Source: Saonia flava
Lineage (GTDB): Bacteria; Bacteroidota; Bacteroidia; Flavobacteriales; Flavobacteriaceae
NCBI RefSeq assembly: GCF_011927795.1
Contig: NZ_JAATJJ010000002.1
Span: forward strand, 682,001 to 746,000
DNA length: 64,000 nucleotides
Direction: 5' to 3'
Positions 6,496-28,955 of the stretch are shown piece by piece. Within the stretch, counting starts at the first letter, position 1; each line of letters opens with the position of its first letter. The notes beneath the pieces are model-generated. The model did no database searches, was not told the origin of the DNA, and was given only the letters and a program-made list of their open reading frames with translations. The position numbers and the translations under genes are program-made.

Positions 6496-8246
6496 AAATC
6501 GAATTTGTAGGTAGCTCCTCCCAGTATTTGAAATCCCTGAACGGGATAATTTGCCCAGCGATTGTAATTATTATTGGCAATATTGGCGGCCTTTGCAAAA
6601 ATAGATAGTTGCTCGTTAAATCTATACCCAATATGTGCATTGGCATCAAAATAACTATCTAAAGCAACAATAGCTGCAGGAAAATTTTCGGGTGCTGTAT
6701 TCTGTACAAAAACAGTTGTAAAATCTTCTCTTTCTCCAACATAAAATAAGTTAAGCCCCATGAACCACTCCTCGCCTATTTGGTAATCCATAAAAAGAGT
6801 ACCTTTTATGTTTGGTAGATTCCATGCTGGATTATCAGTTTCCGTATCATACTCATACACCTCCGCATTGACTCCCAAAGAGAAATTTCGATTTACATCA
6901 ACATTCAATTCACCAAATATGCCCAGTGTTCGCACGTCATCATAAAACAATTCAAAAGAGTTACCATAATAGTATCCCTTTTCATCAGTTCTAAAAAGAT
7001 TTGTTGGGTTTAATTTAAACAGGGGTTTTCTATTTTCGGCCATATAAGAACCCTTTATATTATAGCTAACATTAGAAAACAATTGTCCCTTTAATCCAAT
7101 ATAAGCATCATACTGCTGGTCCGTGGGCACTATAGATAAAGTAGGGGATACATAAGGATTCTCCTCTACAAAACTATAATACGAATTTTGTTTTAGTTCT
7201 CCCTCTATACCTCCATAAGCAATAACATCATCCTCCACCAAACGGTAAGAAGCTGTTACAGTGGGGTAAATGAAAAAATTACCGTCACTATTTTCCATAT
7301 CCATTCCATAAACAAAATTGGCTCCTAAATTTAAAGTCAAATCATCTCTAAGAATTAAAATACTGGGATTTACACCCGCTTGAAAATAACTATAATCAAT
7401 CCCAGGTATATTGGCTTCATTGGCAAGGTTGGCATTTTCAAAAGTACCGCCCACATAATCCAATTTGGCCTTAATGGTCACCAATTCCTCGGTAAGTGGC
7501 AACTCAATAGTGGGTGACAATACCGCTCTATTCTCTCCAGATTCAACTCCGTCCCAAAACCGTCTTAAAAGTAGCTCACCCCTTTTAAAAAAAGAGTCTT
7601 CCATATTGACATGGGCTCCAGCCTGTGCTTTATAATAATTCTGACGTTCATCTATTCCATCAATAGTAGCATCATCAAAAGCTCCATCAGGAATTCCATA
7701 CCAATTGTACAATTGGTGTTGCAGTCCAAGATTTACACCCCAATCATAATCACTATCTTTTTTAGCATAAGAACTTTCCAGTTTTGTATTATAAAATATA
7801 TTGTCCAATGCAGTTCCGTCTATTTCTCCTCTAGACGAATGATGGTTAAACCCTACGTCTAATAAATCCTCTCCCCTATTAAAACTTCTACTGGTATAAA
7901 AATCTACTAGGGCATTGTTATAATTTCCCAAACCTACTGATGCATAAGAATTGAACAACACAGGTGGTGGAGTTTTTTCCACCGTCGCAGCCTTTCCTTT
8001 GGCCGGAGTAAAAGTGGACGCAACTGGCACGGAAAAAATATTGTACTCAATTTCCTTTTTTCGCAACACAATGGAATCATTCAAACTTGGGGTGGATTTC
8101 AACTTAAAAGCATCTGAAATAGTGGGTGTATATGCCTTTGTCACTGTAACCGTTTCTGTACCAATAGTCTCTTCCTCCTGTGCTTGCGCCCATACTGAAA
8201 ACCCCATAAAAAATATCAAAACTATCCTTATTTTCTTCTGCATCAT
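6492..8246 (-). CDS. Plugless TonB-receptor-like outer membrane beta-barrel
   Basis: A 584-aa protein with a signal peptide (MMQKKIRIVLIFFMGFSVWAQAQ). After a short segment containing TETVTVTKAYTPTISDAFK come alternating hydrophobic/polar strands and a terminal aromatic (FKFDF), as in outer membrane barrels. It resembles the barrel half of TonB-dependent receptors but is too short to hold a normal plug domain, and no carboxypeptidase-like repeat is present. It starts 13 bp after the stop of the 1006-aa TPR gene, so the two form an operon, presumably a barrel with its periplasmic TPR partner. Substrate unknown. Confidence 0.75.
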   Translation of the reverse strand: MMQKKIRIVLIFFMGFSVWAQAQEEETIGTETVTVTKAYTPTISDAFKLKSTPSLNDSIVLRKKEIEYNIFSVPVASTFTPAKGKAATVEKTPPPVLFNSYASVGLGNYNNALVDFYTSRSFNRGEDLLDVGFNHHSSRGEIDGTALDNIFYNTKLESSYAKKDSDYDWGVNLGLQHQLYNWYGIPDGAFDDATIDGIDERQNYYKAQAGAHVNMEDSFFKRGELLLRRFWDGVESGENRAVLSPTIELPLTEELVTIKAKLDYVGGTFENANLANEANIPGIDYSYFQAGVNPSILILRDDLTLNLGANFVYGMDMENSDGNFFIYPTVTASYRLVEDDVIAYGGIEGELKQNSYYSFVEENPYVSPTLSIVPTDQQYDAYIGLKGQLFSNVSYNIKGSYMAENRKPLFKLNPTNLFRTDEKGYYYGNSFELFYDDVRTLGIFGELNVDVNRNFSLGVNAEVYEYDTETDNPAWNLPNIKGTLFMDYQIGEEWFMGLNLFYVGEREDFTTVFVQNTAPENFPAAIVALDSYFDANAHIGYRFNEQLSIFAKAANIANNNYNRWANYPVQGFQILGGATYKFDF

Positions 8247-8259
8247 GTATTTGATTGAT

Positions 8260-11200
8260 TTAGTTCCCGTCTGGGTTGACCGATGAATTACTTTCTGATT
8301 CCTTTGTTTTAATACTAGCCAATTCTTCTTTCGCCTCTACCACTATTTCTTCATATTGGGCAAAATTGGAAATAACACTTTCCAGTATGTAAGTTGCTTG
8401 GAAGGCATCGCCCAAAGCATAGAAATTTTTGGCCATGATAATCAGTCCTTTTCCTCCCCATTCCTTATAAGCGGCAAAATCCTTCGCCAATTTTTGAACG
8501 GAAATATTAGAGGTCGCATGATTTTCTGACTTATTTTTAAAATATGCATCGTAGTACCACGCCTCAGCGGCCAACTCTCCATTTGCTATTTTTTGCACTT
8601 CTCTATAGGCGCTTTCCGCCCTATTTTCATCATTGGTCTGTATAGCTGAGCGTGCGATCATGGTATGTGCATCACTCTTTATACGATTATCAATTTTTGG
8701 GGAAGCCAGCACTTTTTCGGCATATGAGATTGTTCTGCGATAATCCTTTTGACCGTAATATCCCTTCATTAAATTAGATTGGGCAAAAGTGACATTTTGC
8801 TGAATTTGGGCCATACTTTCCAATCGCTCCAAAAATGGAATTGCCATGACATAATCTTTGTTTCCAATATAAATCTCGCACACTCTTGTCAAAGCCTGCT
8901 CCTGATATTCACTGGTTCCTCTATTTGCCACATCTTGGTAAAAGGGCAACGCTTTATCACGTTGTTCTTTCCCAAAATAAAGTTGAGCCAAATTAAAGTT
9001 GGCGTTGAGCGCATGCAATCCATTAGGGAACTGCTTTACATAACTTTCATACCCCTTAATCGCGGCATCCTGGTTGCCCTCTATATATTGTTTATTGGCT
9101 GACTCAAAAGTAGCATTATCCAATTCGGTATCAGTCACTTCAACAAAATCCAATCCCCTGACCCAATCGGCATATTCGTTTACACGGCCCAAATCAACAT
9201 AAATTAATTTTGCGGTGGCCACGGCCTGGACCGCTTCCTGTGTCTTGGGATAACTACGAACCACTGTTTTGAATTTACCCAGAGCTTCCTCATTTCTATT
9301 GGCATTGTAATGCACCAGCCCTTGCCTCATTAATGCTTGTGGTGCCAAAGAACTGCCTCTATACTCATCTATCAGTCTATCGTAGGCATTCATTCCATCA
9401 CTTTCCCTATTTGCTTTTATATATGAATTTCCCAACTCGAACAAAGCATCATCCTTTAAGCTTGATCTAGAAAACCTATCCACAAACTTATTAAGTTCTT
9501 CAATTTTTCTTTCATTCCTATCTACAAAACCATAGCTTATTGCTTTTTGGAATGCAGCATAATCCCTTTCGGCCCCGTTCATTTCCAAGGCTTTGTTGTA
9601 AGCTTCAATGGCGGGCCAGTATTTACTTGTTACAAAATGGCTATCTCCCAAACGGAGATAACTGTCATTTAACCTTTCATCATCATCCCCGGAACTGGCA
9701 AAGCTCGTAAAGTAGGTTATAGCACTTCCATAGTCCTTCATTTTAAAATAACTGTAACCCAAATTATAGTCCAGCTCTTTAAATTCCTCAGTAGTAGAGG
9801 CCATTGGATTTTTTTGAAATTGCACAAAATCTACCAGTGCTTCATCAAATCTATTCAACCTATATGCTGATTCTGCCTTCCAGTAACTTGCTCTTGCCTC
9901 AAACAATCTGTCCTCGGCACTTTTTAAGGATTTTGAAAAGGCATCGATAGCCCCAGAATAATCGGTATCCAAGAAAAGCTCCACTCCACGATAAAAAGCT
10001 ACTTTTTGATAGGTCGCTTTGCTTGCGTAATTTTTGTTCTCTTCCAGTAAAGTCATGGCACCTTCAAAATTTTTGGAAGTTATATAGGAATCTACCAACA
10101 ATTCCTGCATCTCATTCTGATGCTCATCATTGGGATATTTCTTTAAATAATTGGAAAGAACATTGGGTACAGGTTCGTATGCATTCCCAATCTCGTAACT
10201 TAATCTGGCATAGTTTAAATAGGAATCTTTTTCTATTTCTGGACTAAAATCCATTTGGGAAGCATTCCTAAAAGCATTTAAAGCCTCTTGTTTTTTATCC
10301 AACTTTAAATAACATTCCGCCAAATGATAGTATGCATTTTGGGAAACACTATTTGTTCCTCCAATAATTTTATTAAATTGTTGAATGGCATTCGCATAGT
10401 CTCCCTGCTTATAATAGCTGTACCCAAGAAAATAATAATCGGTGTTGTTCCATTTACCCCTTCTGCCTTTATACTCCTCCAAATAGGGAATGGCATTGGC
10501 ATATTGTTCTAGATTAAAATAACTTTCCCCAATAATTTTATTAAGTTCGGAAACCTCTCGCCTATCTGATTTTGGCAATTGTTTTTTGGCCAATACAATA
10601 GCTTCTTCAAAATTCCCCAGCTTAAAATTCATATCAGCCTGAAAATAGGAAAGCTTTTCCTCCAATACATCTTGATCTGTTATTTCATCAAAACGCTCGT
10701 TGGCACCTTCATAATCGTCCTGTTGATAGGCTATATACCCTAGGTAATACTTTGCTTGGGAACCATAGGTAGGTGAATTTTCTACTTTGCTCAAATATCG
10801 TTCTGCCTCTTTTGGTTTTTTGGAAGAAAATAAAGCATATCCATTATTGAAATTAAAACGTTCCTTATCTTTTCTGGACATGGCACTTTGATCTACCTTT
10901 TTGTACCACTTTAAGGCATAAGGATATTTTCCAGTCTCAAAATAGTAGTCTGCCACATCTATAAAAGCAGAATTTCTCTTTGTGGAGGTTGGGTAACGCT
11001 CCACAAAATCTTCCATCAACCTATCTGCACCCAACTGATTCAATCGTATGGCCGCATTGGCCATATAGTAGGCACTATTGGCCTCAGTTTCCATATCTTT
11101 TGTAGTGGACTTTACTTTGGCAAAAATAGTCTGGGCCGCCTGATATTGTTCATTATTATAGAGTGCAAGAGCATCTTGGTATTCTTTTTCAGAATGTGTA

Positions 11201-22672: not shown

Positions 22673-23878
22673 TTAATCGAGACCATCTACATAATCTTGT
22701 AAGTAACTGTATTTGGCCGTAAGTTTTCCATTTTGAGTCATTCTTGCCCTCTCTAACACTCCATCCTTGTCACCATTGAAAAATGCGGGAATCACATACT
22801 GGGAAAAGGCCTCGCCAAAACCAACACTTGCATCATTTGGAAGTTCACAAGGTAAATTATCCACTGCCATAACCGCTATGGCATTTGGATTTTTGTAATC
22901 TGTCTCAGATTCGGTTGCTGGGTCATAACCATAAATAGGATCTGCAATTGTGGAAGCCCTAAGGGTTGTGGCCACTGGACCGTCTATGTCGCAACTTACA
23001 TCCGCCACCACTTTTATTTTAAAATCAGGGTGTTTTACATCTTCACGGGTATATAAATAAGGTGCTCCATCTCCATAAAAATGTCCTGCGATATAAAAAT
23101 CGGTGACTTTGGCGAACCTAAAAAAGTTGGACTTGTACTCCTCGGGATGATCAAAAAAGTCTTGCATATTTCCTTTTACCCCATCCTTTCTAAGATTATA
23201 TTCTGATACATCTTCTTGGCAATATACAGGCTCATCATAATCCTTTTCCAAATAATCATGCACAGCTACCTGTTTAATATTCATGGCATCCAACATTTCC
23301 TTGGCTCCATTGCCAACCCGGCCTTTACCCGTTAAAAATATTTTGATATTGGGAAGCTGTATTTTTTTAAGCTCTGTAATCAATGCTTGTTGGTCTGCCA
23401 AGGTTTCTGCTTTTGGCAATTTATATAAGTTAAATTTTAATCCATAGGTCCTAAACCCATTGTAAGCACCCACAATACCAGCATACCGGCCAAAGGCAAC
23501 CAACCGTTGTCCATTTGGTGCAGTAATAACCTCATGGTCATAGAGTTCAATGTTCTTTTCTAATATAGCCTTGAGCAATTCCCTATTGTAGGGTTGTTTT
23601 TTAATGGTATGTGAAAAGAAAAAATACTTTTTATTGGGAATTAAAAACTCTATAGGAACTTCTTTGACTCCTACAAGTACATCGCATTGTTCCATATCTG
23701 GACTTAATTGCAACCCAGCTGCTTTATATTCTTCATCCTTAAAAACCCGAATTCGGGAAGGTTCTACCACAATTTCAGCCATTGGAAAGTCTAACCTGAC
23801 TTTTTGGCAAGCCACTGGGGACAGCACCACACGCCTATCTGGTGGGGTTTTGCGTTCTCTAATGATACCGAATTTCAT
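22673..23878 (-). CDS. Saccharopine/alanine dehydrogenase-like NAD(P)-dependent enzyme
   Basis: A 401-aa cytoplasmic protein. The N-terminal alanine dehydrogenase/PNT domain starts MKFGIIRERKTPPDRRV and has CDVLVGVKEVP and the motif YFFFSHTIKKQ, typical of lysine-forming saccharopine dehydrogenase relatives. The Rossmann part contains IKIFLTGKGRVGNGAKEML in place of the usual GxGxxG pattern (GKGRVG). VADVSCDIDGPV and PDY-like YGYDPATES follow. The probable reaction is oxidoreduction of an amino acid or a secondary amine; the substrate is not defined. It is transcribed away from the ncRNA/tmRNA region. Confidence 0.75.
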   Translation of the reverse strand: MKFGIIRERKTPPDRRVVLSPVACQKVRLDFPMAEIVVEPSRIRVFKDEEYKAAGLQLSPDMEQCDVLVGVKEVPIEFLIPNKKYFFFSHTIKKQPYNRELLKAILEKNIELYDHEVITAPNGQRLVAFGRYAGIVGAYNGFRTYGLKFNLYKLPKAETLADQQALITELKKIQLPNIKIFLTGKGRVGNGAKEMLDAMNIKQVAVHDYLEKDYDEPVYCQEDVSEYNLRKDGVKGNMQDFFDHPEEYKSNFFRFAKVTDFYIAGHFYGDGAPYLYTREDVKHPDFKIKVVADVSCDIDGPVATTLRASTIADPIYGYDPATESETDYKNPNAIAVMAVDNLPCELPNDASVGFGEAFSQYVIPAFFNGDKDGVLERARMTQNGKLTAKYSYLQDYVDGLD

Positions 23879-24772: not shown

Positions 24773-26353
24773 TTAAACTTGAGCTTTGGCGTTACCTTTA
24801 CTTTGAGATGTAATTACCTGCTCCAATATTTCCCTTATTTCCTTATTTTTAAACTTTATGGCATCGTCCAAAGGTGTGTTTCCCCATCTATCTTTAGGTG
24901 CTAGATTAACCTTCATTCCAACAAGATGTCTAACTACATCTGTTTGTCCTTCACATGCTGCCAAGTGCAAGGGTGTACGCCCATCATAATCTGCTATGTT
25001 TGGACTAACGCCCTCTGCCTCTAACCGAAATATTTCATCCATATCTCCATGACTGGCTGCTCTAATTAATTCCATCACTTTTGATGCCTGCAGCTCACTT
25101 TCTTTTCTTCGGGGATTAATTTTATTTGAATGCCCTATAAGTGAATCGTATTGATGAAAACTAAAACGCTCCACTAGTCGTTCACAAAACTCTACCCCAC
25201 GAACACTGTTTCCCAAATGGTCCAACCTTGGAGACCAAATACTGATTCCCATTACATTTGGAATCACTAGCATTAAAGCGCCTGAAACTCCACTTTTAGC
25301 TGGCAAACCTATCTTAAATGCAAACTCCCCCGAGAAATCATACATACCGCAACTCAACATCAATGAAAGACAATTTTGAACTGTTGATGGCTGAAAAATC
25401 ATATTCCCTGTCAATGGATTGGTACCTGCATTGGCCAGTGTGGCGGCTGCAACAGAAAGGTTGGTGGTACAAGATTCTATTGAGCAACACTGAAAATAGA
25501 ATTCCAAAGTTTCTGTTAGGTTGGTCTTTTCGGGAAAAGCATTTTTCTCACGCATAAAATATGCTAAAGCAAAATTTCTATCTGCTGTTTGCCGCTCAGA
25601 TAAATACACTGAATTATTAAAATTCACCTGCTTCTCTCCGCAGAGTGCTTGCCATGTTTTACTAACTTTATCAAAACGATCAGCAATATTATTTTCCCTA
25701 TCTATTAAAGAAGTACTCATTATAGCTCCGGCATTGATCATAGGATTATGGGGCAGACCGCGAGAATTTAATGTTAGTTCATTAAAGGAATGTCCGCTAG
25801 GCTCACGGCCTACATGACTATGTACTTTTTCTCCACCAAGTTCTTCCAGAGCAAGACAATAATTAACGGGCTTACATGAAGACTGCAGGCAAAAATTAAC
25901 AGTGGCATCCCCCAAGGAGAATCGCTGTCCGTCCACAGTACAAATGGAAATAGCAAATTGATTTGGATTTACACGTGCTAGTTGGGGAATATAATCGGCA
26001 ACATTACCTTTTCTATTTTTTAATGTTTCCAAAAACATTTTTTCAACCTCCTTACAGAAGGATTCAAAATCTGGAATAACCAAATTTTCTGTAAGCGATT
26101 TTTTAATCAATGCATTCTGCTTAAGAATTTCATTGAAATCAACTTGTGTTATGGCCTTAAATATTTTCTCTTCCTTTCCCCGTAAATTGAATGTATTGAG
26201 TACTTCCTGTATTCTAGGGTCATCCAACAAAATACCTGCTCGGGCCAATTGAACCAAAAATTTATCGGATTCTATGGTGTTTTTCTTGCCATGATCCAAC
26301 ATTTTAAAAAGCGAATCAGCTGCACTGTTATCAATTTGTGTAGTAGTTATCAT
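24773..26353 (-). CDS. glsA: Glutaminase with helical N-domain and ankyrin repeats
   Basis: Hydrolyses glutamine to glutamate and ammonia. A 526-aa protein with the layout of animal GLS. An N-terminal helical/EF-hand-like region (about 10-110, DSLFKMLDHGKKNTIESDKF) is followed by a serine-dependent glutaminase domain (about 115-400). In it, S158-S-C-K161 is the nucleophile/base motif, with GREPSGHSFNELTLN, PHNPMINAGAI and AKSGVSGALMLV conserved. C-terminal ankyrin repeats (about 430-520) include DGRTPLHLAACEGQTDVVRHL and WGNTPLDDAIKF. Most bacterial GlsA are about 310 aa and lack both flanking domains. Cytoplasmic; single gene. Confidence 0.92.
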   Translation of the reverse strand: MITTTQIDNSAADSLFKMLDHGKKNTIESDKFLVQLARAGILLDDPRIQEVLNTFNLRGKEEKIFKAITQVDFNEILKQNALIKKSLTENLVIPDFESFCKEVEKMFLETLKNRKGNVADYIPQLARVNPNQFAISICTVDGQRFSLGDATVNFCLQSSCKPVNYCLALEELGGEKVHSHVGREPSGHSFNELTLNSRGLPHNPMINAGAIMSTSLIDRENNIADRFDKVSKTWQALCGEKQVNFNNSVYLSERQTADRNFALAYFMREKNAFPEKTNLTETLEFYFQCCSIESCTTNLSVAAATLANAGTNPLTGNMIFQPSTVQNCLSLMLSCGMYDFSGEFAFKIGLPAKSGVSGALMLVIPNVMGISIWSPRLDHLGNSVRGVEFCERLVERFSFHQYDSLIGHSNKINPRRKESELQASKVMELIRAASHGDMDEIFRLEAEGVSPNIADYDGRTPLHLAACEGQTDVVRHLVGMKVNLAPKDRWGNTPLDDAIKFKNKEIREILEQVITSQSKGNAKAQV

Positions 26354-26759: not shown

Positions 26760-27095
26760 CTATTGGATTATTTCACTACTACTTTCCATGCTCGCCCAAT
26801 AATCATCATGTTCAGGGCGTGTATTTTTGGCTTTCGGTCCTGTAATGATTTTTCGTTGTTCGTATACTACAGCAATCCTTTCACATTTATCTTCCCAAAG
26901 TTTCAGATTTTTGGCCTTTGGGCCAGTAAGTGGTTTGTGGTTGTGATTTTTAACCATTACAATTGAAGATTCCCTAGGGTTCTCCCATGGTTTGCGATTT
27001 TTGGCCTCTGGACCAGTTAATTGGTTTTGCTGGGCACTCATGAACCAAATTGATAATAGGCAGAGTCCGATTGTTATGAAAATTCTGTTTTTCAT
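26760..27095 (-). CDS. Small exported protein with three TGPxAKN repeats
   Basis: A 111-aa protein with a signal peptide (IFITIGLCLLSIWFMSAQ). The mature chain consists of three spaced copies of [LI]TGP[EK]AKN at residues 26-33, 56-63 and 84-91 (spacing 30 and 28). The first two are followed by KPWE or KLWE and then a Glu/Arg-rich linker. The DNA of the three copies is also recognisably similar, so they arose by internal duplication. Family and function not recognised. Upstream lies the divergently regulated region of the AraC-fusion gene, on the same strand. Confidence 0.65.
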   Translation of the reverse strand: MKNRIFITIGLCLLSIWFMSAQQNQLTGPEAKNRKPWENPRESSIVMVKNHNHKPLTGPKAKNLKLWEDKCERIAVVYEQRKIITGPKAKNTRPEHDDYWASMESSSEIIQ

Positions 27096-27249
27096 GATAT
27101 TTGTTATTTTTATTGTTTTACGGATGCAAAAGTATAGGGCAATGAAGGTGTATTGTTAGCACAAATCCGAAAAATTCGTGAACATTTCCGACTTGTTCAT
27201 AGTACAAAACCGACCACTTATAACAATTCCGACAAATGCTATTTAAGGC

Positions 27250-28923
27250 CTATTCCTTTTTCTGAAGTAAAGACGAAGGGCTTAATCCAAACTCCTTTTT
27301 GAAAGATTTAGAGAAGTAGGACGGGTTGGAAAAACCTGTCTGATAAGCAATTTCAGCTATATTGTTCTGCTGTTGAAGAAGCAGTTCCTTTGCCCGGTGC
27401 AAGCGCACCGAAGAAATTAATTGAATTGGCGATTTATTAGTGGTAGCTTTAAGTTTTCGCTGCAGTTGACGCTCACTAATGCCAATTTCTTTGCAAAGCA
27501 CCTCAACGCCAAAAAGTTCATCATCCAGATGCGCATCAATGCATTGCAATACATTCTCCAATATGGAATCGTATTTAGGAAGTTTGTGGGGAAATACTAT
27601 ATTGCTAGGTTGGTTATCGGATCTAGAGTCATCCGTAACCCCATATAGTAAAAGTGATTCACCTGTTGAGGGTTCAATTACAGATTTATTTTGTGTAAAA
27701 TTTAAGCCTGCCCCAGATAAAAGATATTTTACAGTCTGTGTCACCAAAATTTGATTGGAACCCGCCTGCCCAAAGATAGACTCTATCAATAAACCCGTTT
27801 CTTTACTTATAAAATGAGACTCATCCACTGCACCTTCTTTGATATGAATACCTATTACTATTTGTGCATTTAAACTTTTGGCAGTATCAATTAAACCGAA
27901 TGCACAATTAACCGCTTTACTTGGCCCCTCAAAATTGGCAATAAAGGTTTGCCCATCACCTTGAATCACCTTTCCACGGTATTGGCCAACATATTGAGCA
28001 AAAAACTCTTGTTGATCATCATTGGGTCTTTGACTTGAAATAATCCGTGCTGCTCCTATAGTGAAAAGCTGTTGCTCATAGTTTTTATCCGGATTCTTTT
28101 TTAAAACAAATAGCTTCATTTGATCAAGAACTTCCTTTGTCTTCCCGACCCAAAAAAGATGGTCACTTCCATCCAGTTCCACAAACTTTGCTCCTTCAAT
28201 TCGGTCAGCAATAAATCTTCCTTCCTCAATTTTCACATCGATATCATTTGTTCGTTGCATAATAAGTGTCGGAACTTTTATGGAACCTAAAATGTTAATG
28301 ATATCCACCTCAGTGTTCATTTTGGTAAGTACAAGGGCTGCACTAGGGCTAGCTCCTGAGCGAAAATAATTGGCGAGCCAATCCATGAACTCCTTATCGT
28401 TAGTTTTGGAAGGAGCTAAAGATTCCAGACCTATTTCTCCACTTCCCCAGCTGTTCTCGATCATATCGTAAACAGCTTGGCGTTCCCCGTCTTTTGGAGC
28501 CCATGGATAATTTTCTGCATACCTTCGTTTGGCGAAAATTCCAAATGTAATCAAGGAAATAGTGCGGTTGGGATAGGTTGCTGCAAACAGTGCAGAAACC
28601 GACCCTCCTTCTGAATGCCCAAAGAGAACTGCCTTTTCCGACTGTACTGCGTCCATGACCGCTCTTATATCATCCATTCTTTCCTCTAGAGTAGAAAGTT
28701 CTACAATACGATCGGATAGACCAGTGCCTCTTTTATCAAATAAAATAACCCTGGCTATTTTACCTAATTCCAATAAAAAATTCACCAATTCCGGACAAGC
28801 CCACATCAAATCAATATTGGACACCCATCCCGGAATATAAACCAAGTCAATTTTGCCAGAACCAAAAACTTGGTATGCAATATTGATACTCCCGCTTTTT
28901 GTATATTGGGTCGTGGGTTTCAT
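27250..28923 (-). CDS. Alpha/beta-hydrolase - cyclase-homology - AraC triple-domain regulator
   Basis: A 557-aa cytoplasmic protein. Residues 1-275: alpha/beta hydrolase with nucleophile S104 in FGHSEGG, oxyanion PGWVSN, acid in RTNDIDV and His in DGSDHLFW. Residues about 290-430: sequence like class III adenylyl/guanylyl cyclase domains (FFAQYVGQYRGKVIQGDG, FIANFEGPSKAVNCAFGL, IGIHIKEG), lacking a clear pair of metal Asp residues, so probably a binding and not a catalytic domain. Residues about 457-557: AraC-type double HTH (ISERQLQRKLKA, IAEIAYQTGFSNPSYFSKSFKKEFG). A ligand-hydrolysing or ligand-sensing transcription factor is the natural reading. A 19-bp palindrome sits 14 bp ahead of its start. 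Confidence 0.85.
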   Translation of the reverse strand: MKPTTQYTKSGSINIAYQVFGSGKIDLVYIPGWVSNIDLMWACPELVNFLLELGKIARVILFDKRGTGLSDRIVELSTLEERMDDIRAVMDAVQSEKAVLFGHSEGGSVSALFAATYPNRTISLITFGIFAKRRYAENYPWAPKDGERQAVYDMIENSWGSGEIGLESLAPSKTNDKEFMDWLANYFRSGASPSAALVLTKMNTEVDIINILGSIKVPTLIMQRTNDIDVKIEEGRFIADRIEGAKFVELDGSDHLFWVGKTKEVLDQMKLFVLKKNPDKNYEQQLFTIGAARIISSQRPNDDQQEFFAQYVGQYRGKVIQGDGQTFIANFEGPSKAVNCAFGLIDTAKSLNAQIVIGIHIKEGAVDESHFISKETGLLIESIFGQAGSNQILVTQTVKYLLSGAGLNFTQNKSVIEPSTGESLLLYGVTDDSRSDNQPSNIVFPHKLPKYDSILENVLQCIDAHLDDELFGVEVLCKEIGISERQLQRKLKATTNKSPIQLISSVRLHRAKELLLQQQNNIAEIAYQTGFSNPSYFSKSFKKEFGLSPSSLLQKKE

Positions 28924-28936
28924 AAATTTGTTCTAA

Positions 28937-28955
28937 TTGATAAGTTACTTATCAA
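28937..28955. promoter_or_regulatory. 19-bp perfect palindrome, possible operator
   Basis: TTGATAAGTTACTTATCAA has 9-bp arms around one T, immediately upstream of the hydrolase-AraC gene. The position suggests autoregulation or a leader hairpin. Binding by the downstream protein is inference only. Confidence 0.4.

What the first reader, a model, noticed from the sequence alone, without database searches (positions are those of the whole stretch)
27250..28955. Hydrolase - cyclase-like - AraC fusion with a palindromic site at its start
Three modules in one chain: an intact alpha/beta hydrolase triad, a class III cyclase-like region without clear metal residues, and an AraC DNA-binding end. It could couple hydrolysis of a small molecule, or sensing of a cyclic nucleotide, to transcription.
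Basis: partly seen in the sequence, partly recalled or inferred. Interest (0 to 1): 0.55.

Follow-up and report, generated by a model that had tools for sequence, protein, structure and literature searches.

The report
Hydrolase-pseudocyclase-AraC regulator with conserved operator
A bacterium encodes a gene switch made of a small-molecule-hydrolysing domain, a dead signalling-enzyme domain and a DNA-binding end, and related genomes reveal the repeated DNA sites that it probably binds, which makes its unknown trigger open to test.

Summary
The 557-aa ORF (27250-28923, minus strand) is an alpha/beta hydrolase with an intact triad, a class III cyclase fold without catalytic residues, and an AraC end. 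It recurs over all or nearly all its length in 36 further loci, nearly all Bacteroidota. The triad is kept in 43 of 43 sequences; the first metal Asp and the transition-state Arg in 0 of 43. The closest relatives found outside are LipJ-like hydrolase-cyclases. In the window's own family there are also a hydrolase with an intact cyclase and no HTH, and hydrolases joined directly to AraC; the hydrolase is the constant part. The palindrome at the gene's start is not conserved. The likely operator lies behind the gene: four direct repeats (about TGTCGGAAATGTTATA) spaced 19-22-21 bp, a Bacteroidota -7 box 36 bp past the last, then a small exported repeat protein. This layout, whole or in part, recurs behind 29 of 42 regulator genes before different genes, and once more in this genome. 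Best reading: a one-component activator whose hydrolase senses a small ester or lactone and whose dead cyclase pairs the AraC ends. Ligand, binding and activation are not shown.

The parts
27250..28923 (-). ORF, 557 aa: hydrolase-pseudocyclase-AraC regulator
   Evidence: ORF; Pfam; orthologues
28099..28923 (-). residues 1-275: alpha/beta hydrolase domain, triad S104-D227-H255
   Evidence: triad in 43 of 43; structure match Z about 31 to esterases; mean pairwise identity 0.79 over 35 sequences
27634..28074 (-). residues 284-430: class III cyclase fold without catalytic residues (pseudocyclase)
   Evidence: mean pairwise identity 0.38
27568..27630 (-). residues 432-452: poorly conserved linker, low model confidence
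   Evidence: pLDDT under 50 at 436-452; mean pairwise identity 0.15
27259..27567 (-). residues 453-555: AraC-type DNA-binding domain with two helix-turn-helices
   Evidence: invariant in 35 sequences: R485, Q488, R489, K490, K492, S535, Y536, F537
27220..27235 (-). operator site 1 (TTGTCGGAATTGTTAT)
27201..27216 (-). operator site 2, 19 bp on
27179..27194 (-). operator site 3, 22 bp on
27158..27173 (-). operator site 4, 21 bp on
27127..27134 (-). -7 box TACTTTTG (TAnnTTTG), 36 bp from the TCGG of site 4
   Evidence: that TAnnTTTG is the Bacteroidota -7 consensus is recalled
26760..27095 (-). probable target: 111-aa protein with an apparent signal peptide and three TGPxAKN repeats
   Evidence: no Pfam or NCBIfam family
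24773..26353 (-). neighbour: glutaminase with EF-hand and ankyrin parts; its relatives also lie near orthologues L001, L002, L028

Best explanation
It is a one-component transcription activator, probably cytoplasmic. The alpha/beta hydrolase binds, and probably hydrolyses, a small ester- or lactone-like molecule. The middle domain is a dead class III cyclase kept as a dimerising scaffold that passes on the state of the hydrolase. A flexible linker lets the two AraC ends of a two-fold symmetric dimer bind direct repeats in tandem. Two dimers would fill four 16-bp sites spaced 19-22-21 bp; the site nearest the promoter ends 23 bp before a -7 box, so the protein would recruit RNA polymerase at the adjacent gene (here a TGPxAKN repeat protein) and at a few more promoters. 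Shown by computation: domains, invariant triad, lost cyclase residues, cyclase fold of the model, operator array and its fixed distance to the -7 box, recurrence beside orthologues. Inferred: binding of this protein to the array, activation rather than repression, the scaffold role, ligand sensing by the hydrolase.
For: Domains. Triad 43 of 43; first metal Asp 0 of 43 (R or K in 27); transition-state Arg 0 of 43; 8 of 8 intact cyclases keep both, and the second Asp. Mean pairwise identity hydrolase 0.79, AraC 0.65, cyclase 0.38, linker 0.15 (35 sequences). Architecture series in one family: L074 with intact cyclase and no HTH, L075-L081 direct hydrolase-AraC. Operator: site pair plus -7 box above all 200 shuffles in 16 of 16 seed loci and 14 of 26 held-out loci. 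At a fixed threshold 29 of 42 loci have it within -40 to +400 of the regulator's end, and there are 19 further places in 1.09 Mb, against 2 for the same sequences read backwards. All 19 are outside ORFs of 100 aa or more, where 469 of 600 random positions lie inside one; 18 of 19 have an ORF of 100 aa or more starting 85-237 bp on, against 285 of 600 random positions with one within 55-400 bp. In the four-site scan 14 of 19 places have TAnnTTTG at exactly +36, 2 at +35, 3 elsewhere or not. A second array in this genome has the same 19-22-21-36 spacing.
Against: No binding, expression or enzyme data. The site model was built from 16 of the 42 loci, so those are circular. Of 26 held-out loci 12 fail the shuffle test, and two that pass score low (L033 12.6, L051 4.7); of the 12, six (L012, L015, L016, L022, L029, L032) have a match elsewhere in the locus at the fixed threshold. 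The scan of 395 genomes missed four other genomes that carry the regulator (G065, G108, G127, G139), so co-occurrence was not shown. In this genome the composite pattern at up to 2 mismatches also gives one place that looks like chance, and the control gives 2. Many arrays have only two recognisable sites. Dimer and tetramer are inferred from the sites; only monomers were modelled. Direct hydrolase-AraC fusions show that no cyclase domain is needed for such a regulator, which leaves open why it was kept.
Confidence: 0.75

Rival explanations
1. The middle domain senses a nucleotide: it lost catalysis but binds ATP, GTP or a cyclic nucleotide without metal (Arg or Lys where the metal Asp was), and this, together with the hydrolase, sets DNA binding.
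For: The residue at the first metal position is R or K in 27 of 43; the fold is kept; [quoted passage not shown]
Against: The catalytic positions vary freely and the domain is the least conserved of the three; no conserved replacement pocket was looked for beyond the alignment.
Confidence: 0.1
2. A repressor or autoregulator: the array represses the adjacent gene, and the hydrolase removes or admits an inducer.
For: Same operator evidence; the array lies right behind the regulator's own gene.
Against: All four sites lie upstream of the -7 box and none overlaps it; AraC-type proteins in this geometry usually activate (recalled).
Confidence: 0.12
3. The chain is chiefly an enzyme whose DNA-binding end only controls its own amount; the hydrolase does housekeeping catalysis.
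For: Intact triad and the strongest conservation in the hydrolase.
Against: Invariant AraC residues and a conserved operator-like array in front of unrelated genes.
Confidence: 0.03

Closest known systems
LipJ / Rv1900c of Mycobacterium tuberculosis (NCBIfam NF058673; 1ybt, 1ybu)
   Same: Same order of hydrolase and cyclase domain; 233.7 bits over residues 3-411; nearest solved structure of the middle domain.
   Different: Described as a working, atypical cyclase (PMC4886424, passage), and its model has no DNA-binding end; the window protein is far below the LipJ cut-off of 800 bits and has lost catalytic residues.
Proteobacterial hydrolase-adenylate/guanylate cyclase proteins (Sinorhizobium, Paraburkholderia, Bradyrhizobium plasmids)
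   Same: Up to about 40% identity over residues 1-430.
   Different: Catalytic residues intact in the 7 read; 431-447 aa, too short for an AraC end; Pfam of L066 shows hydrolase and Guanylate_cyc only.
Mclx proteins (cyclase-AAA-LuxR) of mycobacteria
   Same: A cyclase homology domain in one chain with a DNA-binding domain; Mclx2 and Mclx3 lack some canonical residues (PMC4452763, passages).
   Different: LuxR end, AAA/NB-ARC middle, no hydrolase.
Hydrolase-LuxR proteins (L054, L055, L057, L058)
   Same: Hydrolase as N-terminal part of a transcription factor (GerE confirmed for L054).
   Different: LuxR end, no cyclase, 28-31% identity, Ser replaced by Cys in 3 of 4.
RsbQ, KAI2 and D14 hydrolase receptors
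   Same: Hydrolase fold with triad used for signalling (recalled); Z 29.5-30.9.
   Different: Plain esterases and haloperoxidases match at least as well (Z up to 32.3), so a receptor role is not shown; no fused DNA-binding domain.

Membership tests
AraC/XylS transcription regulators | C-terminal double helix-turn-helix domain above the curated score | tested here: met
   HTH_18 89.5 bits, cut-off 33.6
AraC/XylS transcription regulators | binding to direct repeats about two helical turns apart near the promoter | tested here: inconclusive
   conserved arrays 19-22-21 bp with a fixed -7 box; binding itself not measured
alpha/beta hydrolases | fold and Ser-Asp-His triad | tested here: met
   triad 43 of 43
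alpha/beta hydrolases | hydrolytic activity | not testable with these tools
   needs an assay
class III nucleotide cyclases | cyclase homology fold | tested here: met
   model matches 1ybt/1ybu, TM 0.76-0.81
class III nucleotide cyclases | metal-binding Asp pair and transition-state Arg | tested here: not met
   first Asp 0 of 43, Arg 0 of 43, second Asp 6 of 43 in the alignment column or 4 of the 40 that could be read without gaps; the window protein has none of the three
LipJ equivalog (NF058673) | score above the curated cut-off of 800 bits | tested here: not met
   233.7 bits
Mclx (cyclase-LuxR) | LuxR HTH | tested here: not met
   AraC HTH, no GerE match, hydrolase instead
RsbQ/KAI2/D14 receptors | closest structural relatives are the receptors | tested here: inconclusive
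   Z 29.5-30.9 against up to 32.3 for esterases and haloperoxidases

The most novel reading that the evidence does not exclude
A new class of two-input transcription factor: a KAI2/D14-like hydrolase receptor for an endogenous or shared lactone- or ester-type signal, in which the dead cyclase has become a metal-free nucleotide sensor (Arg/Lys in place of the metal Asp) and gates a four-site activator across Bacteroidota; the LipJ-type hydrolases fused to working cyclases would then sense the same kind of signal and report it through cAMP instead of through DNA.
Probability: 0.15. Interest if true: 0.85.

Novelty: new variant of a known kind. Interest (0 to 1): 0.6.

Why it matters
What the hydrolase half of Rv1900c-type proteins is for is, as far as I recall, unsettled. 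This family joins the same hydrolase to an AraC end and leaves a readable operator, so its ligand and the need for its serine can be tested with a simple promoter reporter. It also gives an evolutionary series within one bacterial family from a signalling enzyme to a transcription factor by death of the enzyme: intact cyclase, dead cyclase plus AraC, and AraC without cyclase. The operator model lets one predict targets in genomes with an orthologue.

Tried and rejected
The palindrome as operator: rejected. The sigma-70-type consensus scan was not run, since Bacteroidota promoters differ (recalled). Co-occurrence of operator and regulator over 395 genomes: inconclusive. Apart from the two places in this genome there were 10 places in 9 genomes, against 18 (my count of the rows) for the control pattern, so no excess, but four regulator-bearing genomes were missed too. 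A looser pair pattern in this genome gave 2 places, both in the known array, against 3 for the control. Second copy of the TGPxAKN gene in this genome: none at E up to 1. The idea that the TGPxAKN protein belongs only to this regulator was rejected: it occurs in 17 of 296 relatives, of which only G000 and G544 also match the regulator at E 1e-100, and G544 has the direct hydrolase-AraC form. For print I ran (open-licence PMC library only; titles and abstract starts seen) and looked at passages of PMC4886424, PMC2447327, PMC4452763 and PMC3466318; none of what I saw describes a hydrolase-cyclase-AraC protein. PMC2447327's held text gave only a reference line, though the listing says it names Rv1900c; it could not be used.

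Rows dropped: L037 and L038 (partial matches) from all alignments and counts; L010 and L022 from A1 and A2, because the matched range holds the stop codon; L070 from A1; L076 from the tree, because my script cut its ORF; L052, L059 and L081 as copies; L056 and L060 from the LuxR group. L021 (contig edge) and L051 (cut by my script) lack the start of the protein in the copies used. The Asp check by position flagged L025, L050 and L051; in the aligned column none of 43 has Asp there. The tree has long branches among the plasmid cyclases and its bootstrap had not settled; only the single origin of the pseudocyclase-AraC clade (100/99) and the place of L074 are used.

Full report
The observation. 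The ORF at 27250-28923 on the minus strand encodes 557 aa. Pfam gives an alpha/beta hydrolase at 27-256, an AraC helix-turn-helix at 476-554 and no cyclase model. By sequence the middle matches the cyclase domain of Rv1900c/LipJ (1ybt, E 2e-9) and, weakly, Ma1120 (E 0.003). NCBIfam's LipJ model matches residues 3-411 with 233.7 bits, far below its cut-off of 800. The whole-chain model has mean pLDDT 83.5 and pTM 0.76, with low confidence at 436-452. Residues 280-434 predicted alone give mean pLDDT 90.9; the best four Foldseek matches are the Rv1900c cyclase domain, TM 0.76-0.81 by query length.

Relatives. A scan of species genomes returned 38 loci; 36 hold the protein over all or nearly all its length (L021 starts at residue 45, at a contig edge) at 51-80% identity. 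Nearly all records are Bacteroidota; L008 is filed as Rickettsiales and L022 only as 'bacterium'. The protein is patchy: in a sample of 395 genomes of the phylum, five (the window's own included) have it with an open frame of 560 codons or more, and G282 has a fragment at a contig end. On an alignment of 35 sequences the mean pairwise identity is 0.79 for the hydrolase, 0.65 for the AraC end, 0.38 for the cyclase part and 0.15 for the linker.

A dead cyclase. Against 8 intact hydrolase-cyclases (7 from plasmid records, and L074), the 43 pseudocyclase-AraC sequences have no Asp at the first metal position (R in 18, K in 9, Q in 7), no Arg at the transition-state position, and Asp at the second metal position in 6 of 43, not in the window protein; the 8 comparators keep all three (a gapless count of the second Asp gives 4 of 40, with 3 not read). 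About 12 residues after the first strand are missing too. The motif positions are named from memory of the class III cyclases. The hydrolase triad S104, D227, H255 is present in 43 of 43, in 8 of 8 cyclases and in 5 of 5 direct-AraC sequences counted.

An architecture series. In relatives of the window's own family (f1; Flavobacteriaceae by its closest named orthologues, an inference) I found L074, the same hydrolase with an intact cyclase and no HTH (444 aa; Guanylate_cyc 53.3 bits), and L075-L081, the hydrolase joined directly to an AraC end (open frames of 400-409 codons; HTH_18 confirmed for L078 and L079). They are 54-59% identical to the window in the shared part. Elsewhere in the phylum hydrolases of 28-31% identity end in LuxR (GerE confirmed for L054). 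In the hydrolase tree the pseudocyclase-AraC form is one clade (100/99), while the direct AraC forms need two changes, L075 and L077 grouping with the intact cyclase L074 at 95/93 (long branches, bootstrap not settled). The hydrolase is the constant part; the output was exchanged.

The operator. The palindrome upstream is not conserved. Downstream, between the regulator and the next gene, lie four direct repeats, TTGTCGGAATTGTTAT and variants, at 27235-27220, 27216-27201, 27194-27179 and 27173-27158, spaced 19, 22 and 21 bp, then TACTTTTG at 27134-27127 and the ATG of a 111-aa protein at 27095. A four-site scan of 42 loci gave 19 places; in 14 a TAnnTTTG box starts exactly 36 bp after the TCGG of site 4, in 2 at 35, in 3 (L013, L019, L048) not. 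The 19 places score 14.9-77.3; the best scores in 20 shuffles of one 13.6-kb locus, one strand, were all below -11. With a site pair plus box, 16 of 16 seed loci and 14 of 26 held-out loci beat all 200 mononucleotide shuffles of their own downstream segment; 12 held-out loci do not. A fixed threshold puts a match within -40 to +400 of the regulator's end in 29 of 42 loci and at 19 further places in 1.09 Mb, against 2 in the same sequences read backwards. All 19 lie outside ORFs of 100 aa or more, where 469 of 600 random positions of the same loci lie inside one; 18 of 19 have an ORF of 100 aa or more starting 85-237 bp on, against 285 of 600 random positions with such an ORF within 55-400 bp.

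What is controlled. The genes behind these arrays differ: the TGPxAKN protein (window, L001, L002, L004, L005, L006, L028; and L016, 2.3 kb from the regulator); SprB-repeat lipoproteins with a possible cytochrome part (below Pfam's cut-off in L010) followed by YceI and DUF5777 proteins; Lipoprotein_15 proteins (L007 by Pfam, L021 by likeness); glutamine synthetase (L007, second array); beta/gamma crystallin proteins (L025 by Pfam, L027 and L031 by likeness; second arrays); a BspA-type leucine-rich repeat protein (L029 by Pfam; L020 looks alike); an Amidase_2 protein (L012). Many have an apparent signal peptide, judged by eye. In this genome two searches found one further array, with the same 19-22-21-36 spacing, before a 112-aa protein with an apparent signal peptide and no family match worth the name; the wider one also gave a place with 2 mismatches that looks like chance, with 2 control matches. 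In some loci the regulator sits near nitrogen genes: glutamine synthetase in 4 of 37, glutaminase in 4 of 37 including the window, ammonium transporter in 4 of 37 (families tested on single members).

Mechanism. A two-fold symmetric cyclase-type dimer with flexible linkers can place two AraC ends on tandem repeats, as in AraC itself (recalled); four sites fit two dimers, and loci with two clear sites would fit one. The last site lies where AraC-type activators commonly lie (recalled), so activation is the likelier sign. The ligand is unknown; the fold comparison gives esterases and haloperoxidases first and D14, KAI2 and RsbQ just behind, so a substrate-receptor is possible but not shown.

Known and new. 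Cyclase domains in DNA-binding proteins are known (Mclx: cyclase-AAA-LuxR, some lacking canonical residues; PMC4452763, passages; PMC3466318, passages). Hydrolase-cyclase proteins are known (LipJ; NCBIfam, PDB). I found no account of the hydrolase-dead cyclase-AraC combination, its sister forms or its operator in the open-licence library, which lacks most subscription papers. I file it as a new variant of a known kind.

Noticed in passing
window 26760-27095; L090-L100: Proteins of about 100 aa with an apparent signal peptide and three GPxxKNxKPW repeats form a family without a Pfam or NCBIfam match (two members tested), found in 17 of 296 relatives. In 8 of 11 loci read the gene lies next to a LuxR-type response regulator and a histidine kinase (by eye; Pfam for L095), and in L096 what looks like a glutamine synthetase lies next to it. 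Possible signal or matrix peptide precursor.
   Followed up: partly
L010, L013, L018, L019, L020, L021, L026, L033, L035: Recurrent neighbours of the regulator in 9 of 37 loci: SprB/cytochrome-like lipoprotein, YceI and DUF5777 beta barrel, and in 4 a further small membrane protein (families tested on L010 members only).
   Followed up: partly
L076, L078, L079, L080, L081: Direct hydrolase-AraC genes are followed at about 100 bp by a small SnoaL-like protein (Pfam on L078), with an alike intergenic stretch (about GGACGTTTTAGAA ... TTGAAC) that may be their own operator.
   Followed up: no
L012 and L015, 5-7 kb before the regulator's end: Operator-like arrays in front of an Amidase_2 protein and a 223-aa lipoprotein-like protein, alike in both Aquimarina loci.
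   Followed up: partly
L023 and L024, downstream of the regulator: Genes that look like contractile injection or tail sheath proteins follow the regulator (named by eye, not tested).
   Followed up: no
L029 6001-7653 and about 8099-9763: Two tandem copies of the regulator.
   Followed up: no
L004 about 8000-8200: The TGPxAKN gene reads in two pieces; it is interrupted there.
   Followed up: no
window 24773-26353 and 22673-23878: Glutaminase with EF-hand and ankyrin parts, followed by an alanine dehydrogenase/PNT-type protein.
   Followed up: partly
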